Source: an uncultured Elusimicrobiales bacterium (GTDB taxonomy: Bacteria; Elusimicrobiota; Elusimicrobia; Elusimicrobiales; Elusimicrobiaceae). Taken from it: a stretch of 48,692 nt of DNA. The stretch covers positions 1 through 48,692 of the forward strand of contig CALUYP010000016.1 in the NCBI GenBank assembly GCA_944325055.1, in the 5' to 3' direction. A program made the position numbers and the translations under genes. Below the pieces are notes generated by a model. It was given only the letters and a program-made list of their open reading frames with translations, had not been told where the DNA came from and made no database searches. Shown in pieces: positions 15,165 through 46,176 of this stretch (positions are counted from its first letter, which is position 1; each line of letters starts with the position of its first letter).

Positions 15165-15205
15165 TAGGTCCAAAAGATTTCGAATTTAGGGCTTTTGGGT
15201 ACTGG
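15165..15205 (+). promoter_or_regulatory. Bipartite TAGGTC regulatory element, copy A
   Basis: TAGGTC (15165-15170), 16-bp spacer, then TAGGGCTTTTGGGTACTGG (15187-15205). The two TAGG boxes are 22 bp apart, two helical turns. A -10-like TATCCT (15226-15231) follows 20 bp later, and the start codon lies 57 bp after the element. Same layout as copies at 18186 and 44770. Of the three copies this is the most divergent in its right half. Confidence 0.6.
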
Positions 15206-15261
15206 TATTTTTTTAAAAAAATCTGTATCCTTTAAGTAAGCAGAAAAATAAGGAGAAATTT

Positions 15262-15933
15262 ATGAAAAAAGCATTTGTGTATTTTTTCGTTATTGTATTG
15301 GGTATGATGGGAACTACATTGGTTGTCAATGCGGAAGATTTTTCTAAACAGATTCAAAATCAAGTACAAAAATCAATGCAAAAACGAGAACTTGAAAGAC
15401 TCTTGTCTTTCCCTGAAGACGCCAAAATGTCTGTAAAAGCCATGTGGACTCTTCATAATACAGCCAGACAACCCCTAGGTTCAAATATCGCGATACCAAC
15501 CGAATCCATTTTGAATACTGCATATTGCAGCGCGGTATTATGCAACTACACAGAAAAACAAAATGTGGGGATAGCCAGCATTGCTTTTGGTAAAGAATGT
15601 TTTAGCCAAGTCCAAAAGGAAAAAGCAGATGCGCCTGTTTTTAGATTTCATGTCAATTTAGGTCAATTTGGCTATTATTTCGAAGGAGAAATGGAAGGAG
15701 AACCTTTCTTCTTTGAGACGGAAGTGGACCAAGAAAAAGATATCAAACGCCTCTTTCATTCTGTTACGACCGCCTCAGGGAAGGAACTCTATCTCTTTAA
15801 TATGCCAGTACGGACTGAGTTATTGAAACAAGCTTTTAAAGATTTCTTTGACAAGAATGAGCCTGTTTCGAATGATTTAGCGGCAGCGGTTTTAAAGTAT
15901 ATGCCTCAGCCGCAATATGAAGTAATTTTATAA
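15262..15933 (+). CDS. Exported protein, unknown family; paralogue of the 18284-18907 product
   Basis: A 223-residue protein with a signal peptide (residues 1-24, cleavage after VNA). The mature part begins with an amphipathic helix, then C-S-A at Cys89, a second Cys at 113 in FGKECF, and ends with the motif ELYLFNMPVRTELLKQAF (175-192). The product of 18284-18907 shares this layout, including YVFNMPVTD. The paired Cys and the hydrophobic YLFNMP strand loosely match the first barrel of the trypsin-like pseudoproteases encoded next door, so it may be a one-barrel relative; that is inference. Ribosome-binding site AAGGAG. Preceded by regulatory element copy A and followed by a strong terminator, so monocistronic. 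Confidence 0.8.
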   Translation: MKKAFVYFFVIVLGMMGTTLVVNAEDFSKQIQNQVQKSMQKRELERLLSFPEDAKMSVKAMWTLHNTARQPLGSNIAIPTESILNTAYCSAVLCNYTEKQNVGIASIAFGKECFSQVQKEKADAPVFRFHVNLGQFGYYFEGEMEGEPFFFETEVDQEKDIKRLFHSVTTASGKELYLFNMPVRTELLKQAFKDFFDKNEPVSNDLAAAVLKYMPQPQYEVIL

Positions 15934-16088: not shown

Positions 16089-17060
16089 ATGAAAAATAAA
16101 AAATTCTTATCCACCTTACTCATACTCGGAGGTGTTTTGGTTTCAAGTCAGGCTGCAATTGCTGCGGATTTAAAGCCAGCATTAGAGAGAAAGATTTCCA
16201 ACATAGTGCTAAATCAAAATGCAATTGAAAACAATTTACGGATAGATTTTGAAATTACCGAATCAGTCTACCGAGAAGATTCGCCTCGTAGCGCATCCTA
16301 CTGGGGAAGGGAATCCAGCAACAACACTGAAATGGGGCCTTATAAGGCAAAACTTTCTTGTAAGGCCTATGCCCTAGACTCCCACTGGCTGATTCTTTCC
16401 AGCACCTGCATGCGATATGGAAATGATGAAGTAGTCATCTATGATCAAATTTATCCTTACCGCACGGGACGTACAATTCATTCCTCGTTTAATGTAGCAG
16501 AATTTCCTGTAGAAAATGCCATTCCAGCCCAAAATATGGCCCTAAAAGGAAATTTAATGCTGTTGTGGACCGATAACGAAGAATTAGCCGCTTCTTTAGA
16601 GACCTTGCCTAAAGCCAATGTACTGGCCGTCAGTTCGCCCAATCAATTATTTGCATTAAGTGCGGATAATATTTTTAAGATTAACACCGCCCGATTGGGC
16701 ACTGACGGCGTACGAATTCGCACTTTAAAAAACAACTCCGTAAATGGAAACAAATTTCAGTTAAATGACAAGTGGACTGATTTGTCCGGCACGGCAACAG
16801 ATCCGTTATTTTTGGTTACACGCAACGGAAACGAATTTCTGGTGGGTTATAACGACGGGATGTTATTATATGCGTTACGTTTTCCACGCAATGATAGTAT
16901 TTGGGATTATCAAGGGAAACCTTCTAAAGACTATTTTTCATTAAATTTAGAGGACCTAAACTTTATTAAAGAAACGGTTTTAAAAGAGCGTCCTCAAGAC
17001 TGGGAACGCATCAAAGAGCGATTATTTTATAACAAAATAAAAAGCCCTTATTTCCAATAA
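16089..17060 (+). CDS. Exported chymotrypsin-fold pseudoprotease, copy 1
   Basis: A 323-residue protein with a signal peptide (1-26, AIA-A). The mature chain reads as a trypsin-like protein without its catalytic triad. Cys91 and Cys107 are 16 residues apart, exactly as Cys42-Cys58 of chymotrypsin, but the His before the second Cys is Thr106 (SSTC for AAHC). The DIALL strand is NLMLL (Asp to Asn155). GDSGGPL is GTATDPL with Ala236 at the nucleophile place, followed by FLV and FLVGYNDG like the S1 strand. The helical N-terminal 60 residues are extra. -10 TATAAT lies at 16060-16065 with a GGAG site before the ATG. It shares about half its residues with the next gene. Probably a binding protein; the ligand is unknown. 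Confidence 0.75.
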   Translation: MKNKKFLSTLLILGGVLVSSQAAIAADLKPALERKISNIVLNQNAIENNLRIDFEITESVYREDSPRSASYWGRESSNNTEMGPYKAKLSCKAYALDSHWLILSSTCMRYGNDEVVIYDQIYPYRTGRTIHSSFNVAEFPVENAIPAQNMALKGNLMLLWTDNEELAASLETLPKANVLAVSSPNQLFALSADNIFKINTARLGTDGVRIRTLKNNSVNGNKFQLNDKWTDLSGTATDPLFLVTRNGNEFLVGYNDGMLLYALRFPRNDSIWDYQGKPSKDYFSLNLEDLNFIKETVLKERPQDWERIKERLFYNKIKSPYFQ

Positions 17061-17061
17061 T

Positions 17062-17102
17062 TTAAATACAAAGGCCTGATAAATAAAACGCCTTGTATTT
17101 AA
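17062..17102 (+). terminator. Hairpin after pseudoprotease copy 1
   Basis: TTAAATACAA(A)GGC (17062-17075) pairs with GCCTTGTATTTAA (17090-17102) with one bulged A. There is no T-run after it, so it may slow or stabilise the transcript rather than terminate it. Confidence 0.4.
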
Positions 17103-17187
17103 GTAATAGGAGCAAAGAGATAAAGGAAAAATGTAATCCATAAAGTTGGATTGATGAAATAGGGAAAAAACACAAACAATTTAAGTT

Positions 17188-18156
17188 ATGAAGAAAATAA
17201 TTGCTTTTCTTTTTTTGTCTGCTTTAGGAACGTTAAGTTTGCAAGCATCAGACTTACCTGTAACGTTATCCAAAAAATTAAGTAGGAAAATAGCGTCTGC
17301 CTTGAAAGAACACAGTGCTATTAGAGCCAATCTACGCATTGATTTTCAAATCAGCGAATTTCTATATAAGCCGAATGCGTTTAGCGGATCCAGCCAATTT
17401 AAATTTGATATGTCTGAAATAGGACCTTACAAAGCGGATTTAGCCTGTAAAGCATATGTATTGGACTCCCACTGGCTGATTGTGTCAGGTACTTGTATGC
17501 GACCAAGCAACGAGAAGATTAATTTTTTTGATTTAGTTTATAGCAAGCGAAAAGACAGGCAAATTCTCTCTCCTTTTGAAATATCCGGATTTCCAATACC
17601 AGACGCTATCCCCGCTCAAAATATCGCCTACAACCGAAATATTATGCTATTGTGGACGGATAACAAGCAGCTAGTCTCTTTTTTAAAGAAAATACCAGCA
17701 GTCAATGTATTAGCAGTTCGTTCGGCAAAAAATTTGTTTGCTTTAAGTGCAGCAAGCACTTTTAAGGTAAATACAGCCCGGTTTGGACTAGACGCCATCC
17801 GAGAAAGGACTTTAAAAGCAGACTCTTACGACAATAATTATTTCCAGCTAAACGAAGGGTTGTTAGATCTGTCAGCAACGGCCACGGATCCGTTATTCTT
17901 GGTTTCCAAAACAGGCAAAGAATTCCTCGTTGGTTTTAATAATGGTTTGCTTTCTTATACGTTGCAAATCACCCAAAACGATATATGGGAAACCTTCGAC
18001 GGCAAACCTTCAGCGGACTTTTTCCCTTTAACTTTGGAAGATTTAAATTTCATTAAATCCACCGTTTTGAAAATTCGTCCGCAAGATTGGATTTCCATTC
18101 AACCGCGGTTATTTTATAATCAAACAAAAACGCCATACTTCAACTTGGAACAATAA
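17188..18156 (+). CDS. Exported chymotrypsin-fold pseudoprotease, copy 2
   Basis: A 322-residue paralogue of the preceding gene with a signal peptide (1-20, LQA-S). It carries the same three losses: Thr102 for His (SGTC, Cys87-Cys103 spacing 16), Asn151 for Asp (NIMLL), and Ala232 for Ser (ATATDPLF). Strand motifs LDSHWLIVS, MLLWTDN, NLFALSA and EFLVGFNNG are kept in both copies, so both are under selection to fold but not to cleave. The C-terminal segment LTLEDLNFIKSTVL-x-RPQDW is also shared. No Shine-Dalgarno sequence or strong promoter is obvious, so it may depend on readthrough from copy 1. Function unknown. Confidence 0.75.
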   Translation: MKKIIAFLFLSALGTLSLQASDLPVTLSKKLSRKIASALKEHSAIRANLRIDFQISEFLYKPNAFSGSSQFKFDMSEIGPYKADLACKAYVLDSHWLIVSGTCMRPSNEKINFFDLVYSKRKDRQILSPFEISGFPIPDAIPAQNIAYNRNIMLLWTDNKQLVSFLKKIPAVNVLAVRSAKNLFALSAASTFKVNTARFGLDAIRERTLKADSYDNNYFQLNEGLLDLSATATDPLFLVSKTGKEFLVGFNNGLLSYTLQITQNDIWETFDGKPSADFFPLTLEDLNFIKSTVLKIRPQDWISIQPRLFYNQTKTPYFNLEQ

Positions 18157-18185: not shown

Positions 18186-18226
18186 TAGGTCTTAAAATCT
18201 TTTAATATAGGTCTTTTATCCTATGG
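18186..18226 (+). promoter_or_regulatory. Bipartite TAGGTC regulatory element, copy B
   Basis: TAGGTC (18186-18191), 16-bp spacer, then TAGGTCTTTTATCCTATGG (18208-18226); the boxes are 22 bp apart. The right half contains TAGG and CCTA as an inverted pair. A -10-like TAGAAT (18246-18251) follows 19 bp later, and the start codon is 57 bp after the element. Confidence 0.65.
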
Positions 18227-18283
18227 TTTTTTATAAAAAAAGAGATAGAATATTTATAATAAAGCAGTAGAGGAGATTCTATT

Positions 18284-18907
18284 ATGAAAAAAGTTTTCTT
18301 TAGTATTATGACAGCATTATGCGGTTTGATTATGAATGCTGCTTTTGTGCAAGCCGAGATGACTTTACGAGAAAATATAGAGGATAAAGTACTAGAAACG
18401 GTCCGCGAACAAGAAAACATACCATCAAAAGCTATCGCTATCTTTAAGACCAATCACCTGCTAAATCAAAGGAAATATCACTCTGTATCCGTTGTGTGTA
18501 ATGCCATTTTACGGAATTACAAAGAACAAGATGCTGAAAGTGGAAATGTAGAAATTGTTTTTGATACCCGATGTTTTGATAAAATTGAGGAATATAGCTA
18601 TACAAACAAATTAAAATTTTCTTTAGAATTAGAATCCTTTCAGGAAAAGAATTCCAAAAATCAAGCTGTAACGAGTTTGGAAATAAATGGGAAAATGTTG
18701 GATTGGAAAAAAGCGATCCAACTTCGTAAGATTAAAAACCAAGATGGAATTGTGGTCATGTATGTGTTTAATATGCCCGTTACAGATAAAAGTATGCTAA
18801 CAGCTTTAAAACTGTTTTTCAAGCAAAATGGGCCTATTGCCAACAAGAACATTTTCAAAAAAATATATAATTTGCCTGAACCTTATACCGTATTTAATAT
18901 TGATTGA
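18284..18907 (+). CDS. Exported protein, unknown family; paralogue of the 15262-15933 product
   Basis: A 207-residue protein with a signal peptide (1-24, VQA-E). Shares with the 15262-15933 product the C-x-A box (Cys72), a second Cys 25 residues on (Cys97, DTRCF), the YVFNMPVTDKS motif, and a C-terminal K-x-FFK-x-NGP segment matching DFFDKNEP. Ribosome-binding site GAGGAG. The two paralogues sit on either side of the pseudoprotease pair, and both have a TAGGTC element in place of a -35 box. No enzyme motif seen; probably a periplasmic or surface protein. Confidence 0.8.
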   Translation: MKKVFFSIMTALCGLIMNAAFVQAEMTLRENIEDKVLETVREQENIPSKAIAIFKTNHLLNQRKYHSVSVVCNAILRNYKEQDAESGNVEIVFDTRCFDKIEEYSYTNKLKFSLELESFQEKNSKNQAVTSLEINGKMLDWKKAIQLRKIKNQDGIVVMYVFNMPVTDKSMLTALKLFFKQNGPIANKNIFKKIYNLPEPYTVFNID

Positions 18908-44769: not shown

Positions 44770-44811
44770 TAGGTCTAAAATACTTCGTAATATGGGTCTT
44801 TTAGCCTATAG
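44770..44811 (+). promoter_or_regulatory. Bipartite TAGGTC regulatory element, copy C
   Basis: TAGGTC (44770-44775), 17-bp spacer, then TGGGTCTTTTAGCCTATAG (44793-44811), 16 of 19 identical to the right half of copy B. A perfect TATAAT (44832-44837) starts 21 bp after the element, and the start codon lies 61 bp after it. No TTGACA-like hexamer at the -35 place. Confidence 0.65.
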
Positions 44812-44871
44812 TGCTATTTTAGATTTTTAAATATAATTAAATTAAGATCCTGCTTTTTAATGGAATAAAAA

Positions 44872-46176
44872 ATGAGAAATAAACAACCCGTTATCCGATT
44901 CTTCGTTTTCTGGACATTGCTTTTTATTTGTCCTTTGTCTACCCAAGCCCAAGCCATTTCTCCATGGTTTCGTGGGGGAAAACAAGTATGGGAGGCCTTG
45001 CTCAAAAAACCAATGGAACTCATTCCCGGAAAAGCTGCTTTCTCCGTACCTTTAAGTCATGCAGTAGCCGGTTCTTCCATAAAAACGACTCCCCATAACT
45101 GGATGTTACACCGTATCAGTTATTCAGGTCTCTTTTGTCGAATAGAAAAAGATATCCTGCTTCAAAAAAATGCTACTGAAAAAGCTATTTTAGGAAAATT
45201 GGCTTATTTTCACGACCGGGATGCGCAGCTGTTTAATACCCTTTCAAGACAATTAGATTTTCAATCAAATGAAACCGCTTTTTGGAGTCACCAAAATGTG
45301 CTGGCTAATACCTTGGCGGAACTGGAAGGATTTTACCAAAGCGTTTTTCCGATCCGGTTTTCAGGCTATCTTTTCACACCTGAACATATCAAACACTTAC
45401 TTGCAGATCCAATACAACCCCCTGCTTTCATATTAAATACCTCCGAAATAGACACCTTTGCTTCTCTAAACACGTTAGACCAGCAACGCGTTTGGCTGGA
45501 AGAAACTTTAAGTTACACCAAAAAAGATCTAGCCGCCTTGCTGAACAAACAACCGGGGAGTCTGAAAAATTATGAATTTGAACGTTATTATCTGCAAAAA
45601 TTACGTTTAGTTTATTTTCAGACGTTACAAAAAATATTGGAAAAAGCCACCGATAGACGCCTTTCTTTAATTTATAGACGCAAACGCAGCCTAAACTTGG
45701 ATTTGCCCGGCGCAAAACAACCCATGACTGACGCCCAACGGCTAGGCTTTTTACGTTACCACTTAGCCAGACAAAACATTGCTCAGATTAATTTTGATCA
45801 ACCAGCACAAAATAGCTTTCAAAAATATACGGAAATCAAGGTTCTTCTTTCCCAACTGGCTCCTATTTACGAACCTTATGCCACAGCAGAAGCATTTGGA
45901 GTTCCTTATGAAAAAGCACTTCGTTTGGGTCCTTCCGCACCAGAAATCATATTAGGAGAAGAGGAAGGAGCAAAACTGCGGCAATATTTTGAAAAAGGTG
46001 ATGCTTCTAAATGGCAGCAACAGCTTCTGACATTGGAAAAACAACTAAATCGCCTACTCAACCAAGATCCTGACGGAGTGGATTTTTATACGCGTTATTA
46101 CCGTTTGGAGCGGGAAAAAACGTTATATAGCACTCTGTTCCTTCGGAAAAATATTATGAGCCAATTTAAGCAATGA
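44872..46176 (+). CDS. Exported helical protein, unknown family
   Basis: A 434-residue protein with a signal peptide (about 1-27, TQA-Q). The mature chain is predicted mostly helical with many aromatic and Gln residues, without Cys pairs or metal motifs. One segment, AAKLRQYFEKGD-like (about 366-378), precedes a long coiled region with ENL-type heptads. No domain recognised. Only a weak ribosome-binding site (TGGAATAA). It is controlled by element copy C. The start codon of a decayed reading frame overlaps its stop (ATGA at 46173-46176), showing it was once the first gene of an operon. Confidence 0.78.
   Translation: MRNKQPVIRFFVFWTLLFICPLSTQAQAISPWFRGGKQVWEALLKKPMELIPGKAAFSVPLSHAVAGSSIKTTPHNWMLHRISYSGLFCRIEKDILLQKNATEKAILGKLAYFHDRDAQLFNTLSRQLDFQSNETAFWSHQNVLANTLAELEGFYQSVFPIRFSGYLFTPEHIKHLLADPIQPPAFILNTSEIDTFASLNTLDQQRVWLEETLSYTKKDLAALLNKQPGSLKNYEFERYYLQKLRLVYFQTLQKILEKATDRRLSLIYRRKRSLNLDLPGAKQPMTDAQRLGFLRYHLARQNIAQINFDQPAQNSFQKYTEIKVLLSQLAPIYEPYATAEAFGVPYEKALRLGPSAPEIILGEEEGAKLRQYFEKGDASKWQQQLLTLEKQLNRLLNQDPDGVDFYTRYYRLEREKTLYSTLFLRKNIMSQFKQ

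What the first reader, a model, noticed from the sequence alone, without database searches (positions are those of the whole stretch)
15165..15231. Three-copy bipartite TAGGTC element replaces the -35 box of exported-protein genes (copy A)
The 15165-15205, 18186-18226 and 44770-44811 sequences share one layout: TAGGTC, 16-17 bp, then T[AG]GG[TG]CTTTT followed in copies B and C by a CCTAT box. The gap from element to start codon is 57, 57 and 61 bp, and 19-21 bp separate the element from a -10-like hexamer (TATCCT, TAGAAT, TATAAT). None has a TTGACA-like -35. All three target genes encode signal-peptide proteins of unknown function, and two of these are paralogues. This strongly suggests a dedicated activator or alternative sigma factor controlling a secreted-protein regulon that I do not recognise.
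Basis: partly seen in the sequence, partly recalled or inferred. Interest (0 to 1): 0.85.

Follow-up and report, generated by a model that had tools for sequence, protein, structure and literature searches.

The report
Exported-protein promoter box in gut Elusimicrobiota
A short palindromic DNA box, usually paired, sits just upstream of the promoters of dozens of secreted-protein genes across an order of little-studied gut bacteria, and it looks like the docking site of one regulator, probably a two-component response regulator, that switches on much of what these cells export.

Summary
The three copies are real and not chance (3 seen, 0.07 expected). They are divergent members of a much larger family. 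In other species of the genus (gut Elusimicrobiaceae, Candidatus Avelusimicrobium-like) the box is TAGGTCTTTTGRCCCTTGT, a near-palindrome GGTC-N4-GRCC. A -10 hexamer starts 37-38 bp after the A of AGGTC, 17 bp past a degenerate TTG -35, and all three window copies keep that offset. A second palindrome usually lies 22.5-25 bp upstream. Genomes of the box-rich genera carry about 12-32 boxes against 1-3 for a reversed control; at the loci examined, 86-91% of the genes behind a box encode signal-peptide proteins, against 33% of background genes. The same promoter occurs in a second family of the order. About a third of these promoters put the ATG 6-8 nt after the -10, so the box is not transcribed: it acts as DNA. 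An activator bound at about -42 of a sigma-70 promoter fits best; an alternative sigma factor does not. Of two conserved NarL-type response regulators, the better candidate is the VraR/DosR-like one beside a CACHE-sensor kinase; that assignment is inferred. Verdict: real, new regulon of a known kind.

The parts
15165..15170 (+). copy A, distal half-site TAGGTC (left half of the upstream partner site)
   Evidence: partner sites 22.5-25 bp upstream are general in the family
15187..15205 (+). copy A, proximal box TAGGGCTTTTGGGTACTGG
15226..15231 (+). copy A, -10 TATCCT, offset 38 from the A of the box
   Evidence: family mode 37-38
15262..15933 (+). copy A target: 223-aa signal-peptide protein of unknown function
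18186..18191 (+). copy B, distal half-site TAGGTC
18208..18226 (+). copy B, proximal box TAGGTCTTTTATCCTATGG
18246..18251 (+). copy B, -10 TAGAAT, offset 37
18284..18907 (+). copy B target: 207-aa signal-peptide protein, distant paralogue of the copy A target
44770..44775 (+). copy C, distal half-site TAGGTC
44793..44811 (+). copy C, proximal box TGGGTCTTTTAGCCTATAG (weakest match to the family matrix)
44832..44837 (+). copy C, -10 TATAAT, offset 38
44872..46176 (+). copy C target: 434-aa signal-peptide protein of unknown function

Best explanation
Each element is an operator-promoter for a transcription activator. A dimer of the regulator binds the near-palindrome GGTC-TTTT-GRCC centred about 42 bp before the inferred transcription start, next to a weak TTG -35, and recruits sigma-70 RNA polymerase (class II activation). 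A second dimer usually binds 22.5-25 bp upstream. Nearly all genes controlled this way encode Sec-exported proteins of many unrelated families, so the regulator sets much of the exported or surface complement. The most likely regulator is a NarL/FixJ-family response regulator. Of the two present, the better candidate is the VraR/DosR-like one (here RR2), encoded after a transmembrane CACHE-HAMP histidine kinase and a REC-histidine kinase, next to TadE-like pilus genes. Shown here: the box, its spacing, its targets and its spread. Inferred: activation, the start site and the identity of the regulator. My estimates: DNA operator of an exported-protein regulon about 0.92; NarL-family regulator about 0.7; RR2 specifically about 0.5.
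For: Box: 67-72 sites, -10 at +37 in 37 of 67 and +38 in 15, TTGT at the -35 position with a 17-bp spacer. Partner dyad in 45 of 72 sites against 9.5 expected, peak at 23-24 bp centre to centre. Spread: 22.9 (first ten g1 genomes), 32 (g11) and 12.5 (g14) hits per genome against 2.6, 1.7 and 1.3 for the reversed pattern. Targets: 30 of 33, 55 of 63 and 67 of 78 downstream genes (0, up to 1, up to 2 mismatches, -10 present) pass the signal-peptide rule against 351 of 1075 background ORFs, Fisher p 1e-11 to 9e-21; they fall in about 44 sequence clusters. Same promoter type in family f2 (G027, G109), often with palindromic partners. Regulator by elimination: HTH_Crp_2 over cut-off in none of five g1 genomes, OmpR winged helix in none of four box-rich genomes, AraC in one of four, LytTR in none; NarL/GerE regulators in every genome tested. 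RR2's nearest solved relatives are VraR and DevR/DosR; the DosR base-contact residues Lys179, Lys182, Asn183 (PMC4082495; PMC5861037) align with identical residues in RR2's KTIKN, while RR1 has NTIHV. G109 yields only an RR2-type GerE protein yet has three well-formed box promoters before exported genes (L267, L301, L306). G105, the one tested genome without the box (1 hit, control 8), has NTVKN in RR2, whereas the other 80 RR2 sequences aligned keep KT[IV]KN; its RR1 recognition helix matches that of box-rich g11.
Against: No box lies near either regulator operon, so there is no autoregulation or neighbourhood link. The G105 argument rests on one genome. Other regulator families (TetR, Xre, Rrf2, Fis-type, proteins without a model) were not searched. 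NarL-type regulators usually pair with HisKA_3 kinases, as RR1's kinase does, while RR2's neighbours are HisKA kinases. Activation is inferred from position and the weak -35; a repressor at the same place is not excluded. The signal-peptide rule is home-made and permissive.
Confidence: 0.55

Rival explanations
1. Same operator and regulon, but bound by the other conserved NarL-type regulator, RR1, encoded with a HisKA_3 kinase next to a penicillin-binding protein gene.
For: RR1 is present in all box-rich genomes tested with a canonical HisKA_3 partner and an envelope-related neighbour.
Against: Its recognition helix NTIHVH lacks the DosR-type contact residues. G109 has box promoters but no RR1 hit. 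G105 keeps the same RR1 helix but has no box enrichment.
Confidence: 0.18
2. The box is bound by an activator or repressor of a family not searched here (for example TetR, Xre, Rrf2, Fis-type, or one with no model).
For: Only five DNA-binding families were searched; palindromes of this length suit many families.
Against: The dyad arrangement and the paired sites about two turns apart at a class II position suit NarL/LuxR-type activators; the one regulator found in every genome tested is of that type.
Confidence: 0.25
3. Promoters of an alternative sigma factor, with TAGGTC..GGTCTTTT as its recognition element.
For: No TTGACA in the three window copies; strong, position-fixed conservation upstream of the -10.
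Against: -10 TAnnnT, TTG at -35 and a 17-bp spacer are kept; the conserved core lies upstream of the -35 hexamer, overlapping only its first T, and a second copy lies 22.5-25 bp further up. Housekeeping promoters of the same genus use TTGACA-N17-TATACT.
Confidence: 0.03
4. A structured RNA leader (riboswitch or attenuator).
For: Inverted repeats such as CCAAAAG..CTTTTGG can be drawn through copy A.
Against: Folding is no better than shuffles (z -0.2, -0.9, -1.7), no Rfam match, and in about a third of the promoters the ATG comes 6-8 nt after the -10, so the box lies upstream of the transcript.
Confidence: 0.01

Closest known systems
DosR/DevR regulon of Mycobacterium tuberculosis (NarL-family response regulator)
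   Same: Operator of the GG.C-N4-G.CC dyad type (DosR box from memory), paired sites with cooperative binding at a second site (PMC4082495), and a candidate regulator with the same three base-contact residues.
   Different: Different half-site, different phylum, targets defined by export rather than by hypoxia, no autoregulation seen, HisKA rather than HisKA_3 kinases beside RR2.
VraR/LiaR cell-envelope response regulators
   Same: Closest solved relatives of RR2 over the full length; envelope-related output.
   Different: VraR has KTVKT where RR2 has KTIKN; regulated genes and sensor differ.
PIP box / hrpII box of Xanthomonas and Ralstonia (HrpX/HrpB, AraC family)
   Same: Works like it in outline: a bipartite box with a roughly 15-16 bp gap upstream of a -10, marking genes for exported effectors (layout from memory).
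   Different: No AraC protein in G000, G045 or G099; proximal element is a dyad, not a plain direct repeat; targets carry Sec signal peptides.
Sigma-54 as controller of the bacterial exterior
   Same: One transcription system devoted largely to surface and exported functions.
   Different: Elusimicrobium minutum is reported to lack sigma-54 (PMC3162934); promoters here are sigma-70-type.

Membership tests
Regulon of a NarL/FixJ-type response regulator (DosR/VraR-like) | Regulator of the REC-GerE type present in every genome that has the box | tested here: met
   RR2 domains confirmed
Regulon of a NarL/FixJ-type response regulator (DosR/VraR-like) | Dyad operator, often paired, near -42 of a sigma-70 promoter | tested here: met
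   start site inferred from the -10, not mapped
Regulon of a NarL/FixJ-type response regulator (DosR/VraR-like) | Recognition-helix contact residues K, K, N as in DosR | tested here: met
   RR2 KTIKN against DevR KTVKN; contacts from PMC4082495
Regulon of a NarL/FixJ-type response regulator (DosR/VraR-like) | Direct binding of the regulator to the box | not testable with these tools
   needs EMSA or DAP-seq
DosR regulon proper | Autoregulation through a box at the regulator's own operon | tested here: not met
   no box at RR2 in 80 named loci
OmpR/PhoB-type direct-repeat regulon | Winged-helix (Trans_reg_C) regulator present | tested here: not met
   0 in G000, G045, G083, G099
CRP/FNR class II regulon | HTH_Crp_2 protein present | tested here: not met
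   0 in G010, G045, G071, G063; the one sub-cut-off hit in G000 reads as a LexA-like protein
AraC-type PIP/hrpII box | HTH_18 protein present in all box genomes | tested here: not met
   only G083 has one
LytTR regulon | LytTR domain present | tested here: not met
   0 of 6 genomes
Alternative sigma factor regulon | Non-sigma-70 -35/-10 pair | tested here: not met
   TTG -35, 17 bp, TAnnnT
Riboswitch or leader RNA | Element lies in the transcript | tested here: not met
   box upstream of the inferred start; ATG 6-8 nt after the -10 in many promoters

The most novel reading that the evidence does not exclude
One conserved CACHE-sensor / REC-kinase / NarL-type response-regulator system governs most of the exported proteome of the order Elusimicrobiales through a single promoter type, in a lineage whose cultured member is reported to lack sigma-54, so that the cell's outer and secreted repertoire is switched as a unit in response to an extracellular signal.
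Probability: 0.35. Interest if true: 0.75.

Novelty: new member of a known kind. Interest (0 to 1): 0.6.

Why it matters
Almost nothing is known of gene regulation in Elusimicrobiota. A box that predicts exported, mostly unannotated proteins across an order gives a sequence handle on its secreted and surface repertoire (proteases, TIKI/ChaN-like proteins, proteins with receiver-like domains, many families without a name) and names two testable regulators. It also offers a case where genes are grouped in one regulon by destination (export) rather than by pathway.

Tried and rejected
RNA element: folding, Rfam and leaderless promoters speak against it. Alternative sigma factor: spacing and -10 speak against it. 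CRP, OmpR, AraC and LytTR regulators: not found in the box-rich genomes as a set. Autoregulation or neighbourhood of the regulators: none found; one 2-mismatch hit in the RR2 cluster (L174 12570) is a chance match inside an ordinary TTGACA/TATACT promoter. A supposed family of about 480-aa targets was an artefact of the 1500-base flank of the fetched loci and was dropped. My first signal-peptide rule was too loose (53% of background) and was replaced by a stricter one (33% of background). No report of this motif was found in the paper library.

Full report
What was checked. A common pattern AGGTC-N10-25-GGKCTTTT is found three times in the window and nowhere else in it; shuffled windows give 0.07 on average and none of 100 reaches three. 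Because that pattern was drawn from the copies, I tested it elsewhere. TAGGTC-N14-18-WRGGKCTTTT occurs at 25 places in other species of the same genus and not once in reversed form in that genus. For 25 of the 28 genus sites, window copies included, a downstream ATG gene could be assigned, and every one starts with a signal-like hydrophobic N-terminus.

Where this is. The genome has 1.32 Mb in 81 contigs. A named scan with one of its response regulators returns, where the record names a taxon, only Elusimicrobiota, mostly gut Elusimicrobiaceae, including Candidatus Avelusimicrobium excrementipullorum. I therefore read the window as a gut Elusimicrobiaceae genome; the exact genus name was not given.

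The real motif. The proximal box is TAGGTCTTTTGRCCCTTGT, core GGTC-N4-GRCC. A -10 TAnnnT starts at +37 (37 of 67 sites) or +38 (15 of 67) from the A of AGGTC. TTGT at +14 gives a -35 hexamer with a 17-bp spacer. If transcription starts about 7 nt after the -10, the proximal dyad is centred near -42, the class II position. A second dyad scores well in 45 of 72 sites (9.5 expected from shuffled upstream sequence), with centres mostly 22.5-25 bp apart and a peak at 23-24. The window copies have the -10 at +38, +37 and +38. By the family matrix they are weak members (total about 8, 9 and 5 bits against 26-41 for most training sites), yet copies A and B are the only sites in the window above 6; random windows gave 0.33 such sites on average.

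Targets. Sites were chosen by DNA pattern only. With a -10 present, 30 of 33 genes (0 mismatches), 55 of 63 (up to 1) and 67 of 78 (up to 2) pass a strict home-made signal-peptide rule; 351 of 1075 background ORFs do (p between 1e-11 and 9e-21). The background came from neighbourhoods of one regulator and may not be typical. The targets fall in about 44 sequence clusters. Those recognised by Pfam include an M20 peptidase, a ChaN/TIKI-like protein (below the curated cut-off) and a protein with a receiver-like domain (below the cut-off). By eye, some carry HExGH motifs. The window targets have no Pfam match. Many target proteins were cut by the 1500-base flank, so lengths are not reliable.

Spread. 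Counts with the 18-base box at up to 3 mismatches, against the reversed pattern: g1 22.9 vs 2.6 (first ten genomes), g11 32 vs 1.7, g14 12.5 vs 1.3, g12 11 vs 7, g13 9 vs 6, g15 1 vs 8, family f2 9.7 vs 5.1. Reading single sites shows that f2 and g13 do have real members. In G027 many sites pair with clean palindromes such as ATAGGTCTTTGGGCCTAT and precede exported genes. G109 has well-formed promoters at L267, L301 and L306. In g13 (G086), L271 has TATAAT at +37 and an ATG 50 bp after the box start, though its gene fails the loose signal-peptide rule. So the system is older than the genus and is most frequent in gut genera g1, g11 and g14.

DNA, not RNA. In 27 of 72 promoters the ATG lies within 10 nt of the -10, mostly 6-8 nt, and none of these has a Shine-Dalgarno sequence; of 45 longer leaders, 32 have one. 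The box is then upstream of the transcript. Folding and Rfam give nothing. I infer leaderless mRNAs for that third; starts were not mapped.

Which regulator. In genomes that have the box I looked for five regulator families. CRP-type: none over cut-off in five g1 genomes. OmpR-type: none in G000, G045, G083, G099. AraC-type: one, in G083 only. LytTR: none. NarL/GerE-type: always present, usually two. RR1 sits with a HisKA_3 kinase next to a penicillin-binding protein gene. RR2 follows a CACHE-HAMP-HisKA kinase and a REC-HisKA kinase and precedes TadE-like genes. RR2's closest solved relatives are VraR and DevR/DosR. DosR reads DNA with Lys179, Lys182 and Asn183 (PMC4082495; PMC5861037), and these align with K, K and N of RR2's KTIKN; RR1 has NTIHV. 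The DosR box, recalled from memory as GGGAC-TWWA-GTCCC, has the same GG.C-N4-G.CC layout. G109 has the box but only an RR2-type protein. G105, the one genome without box enrichment, has NTVKN in RR2 while its RR1 helix is unchanged. These points favour RR2, but no box lies near RR2 or RR1, the G105 point is a single genome, and unsearched families remain. I give RR2 about even odds.

Mechanism. Shown: the dyad, its pairing, the fixed distance to the -10, the weak -35, the exported targets, the order-wide spread. Inferred: class II activation by a dimer at the proximal site, help from a second dimer upstream, control by a two-component system that senses something outside the cell. A repressor at the same position cannot be excluded; the weak -35, in contrast to the TTGACA of an ordinary promoter conserved in the same genus, speaks for activation.

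Known or new. No paper found in the library describes this motif; subscription journals are largely missing from it. It works like known class II regulons and, in outline, like effector boxes such as the PIP box. Elusimicrobium minutum is reported to lack sigma-54 (PMC3162934), which elsewhere is linked to exterior functions; that this box fills that role is speculation. I class it as a new member of a known kind, of solid but not exceptional interest.

Noticed in passing
L174 12553-12682, L183 12554-12683 and the matching place in 16 other named loci: A conserved leader AACTCTGTGTTTGAGCGT...ACGGGTCAACAAGAGTAGTTTTTATTAT between a TTGACA-N17-TATACT promoter and a gene in the RR2/Tad-like cluster; it looks like a structured RNA and has no Rfam match.
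   Followed up: partly
box promoters across the genus, e.g. L009, L014, L022, L023, L028: About a third of box promoters put the ATG 6-8 nt after the -10 with no Shine-Dalgarno sequence, suggesting leaderless mRNAs.
   Followed up: partly
L101, L013, L033 (targets behind boxes): Signal-peptide proteins whose C-terminal part resembles a response-regulator receiver domain (Pfam E 9e-4 for L101, below cut-off), odd for exported proteins.
   Followed up: no
L131 (G000:C41) and L136 (G000:C75): Two related 82-86-aa proteins without a signal peptide behind well-formed boxes with TATAGT at +37: the clearest exceptions to the export rule.
   Followed up: no
window 16089-18156: Two exported proteins, 53% identical to each other, lie between copies A and B; one has a weak DUF1986 hit (E 0.0035, below cut-off). 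No box precedes them, so they may be read through from copy A.
   Followed up: partly
G045 upstream sites, e.g. L089, L092, L095, L119: In some promoters the partner site is a mirror image, GGGGCCAAAAGACCTA-N8-TAGGTCTTTTGRCCC, making a large palindrome of two dyads.
   Followed up: partly
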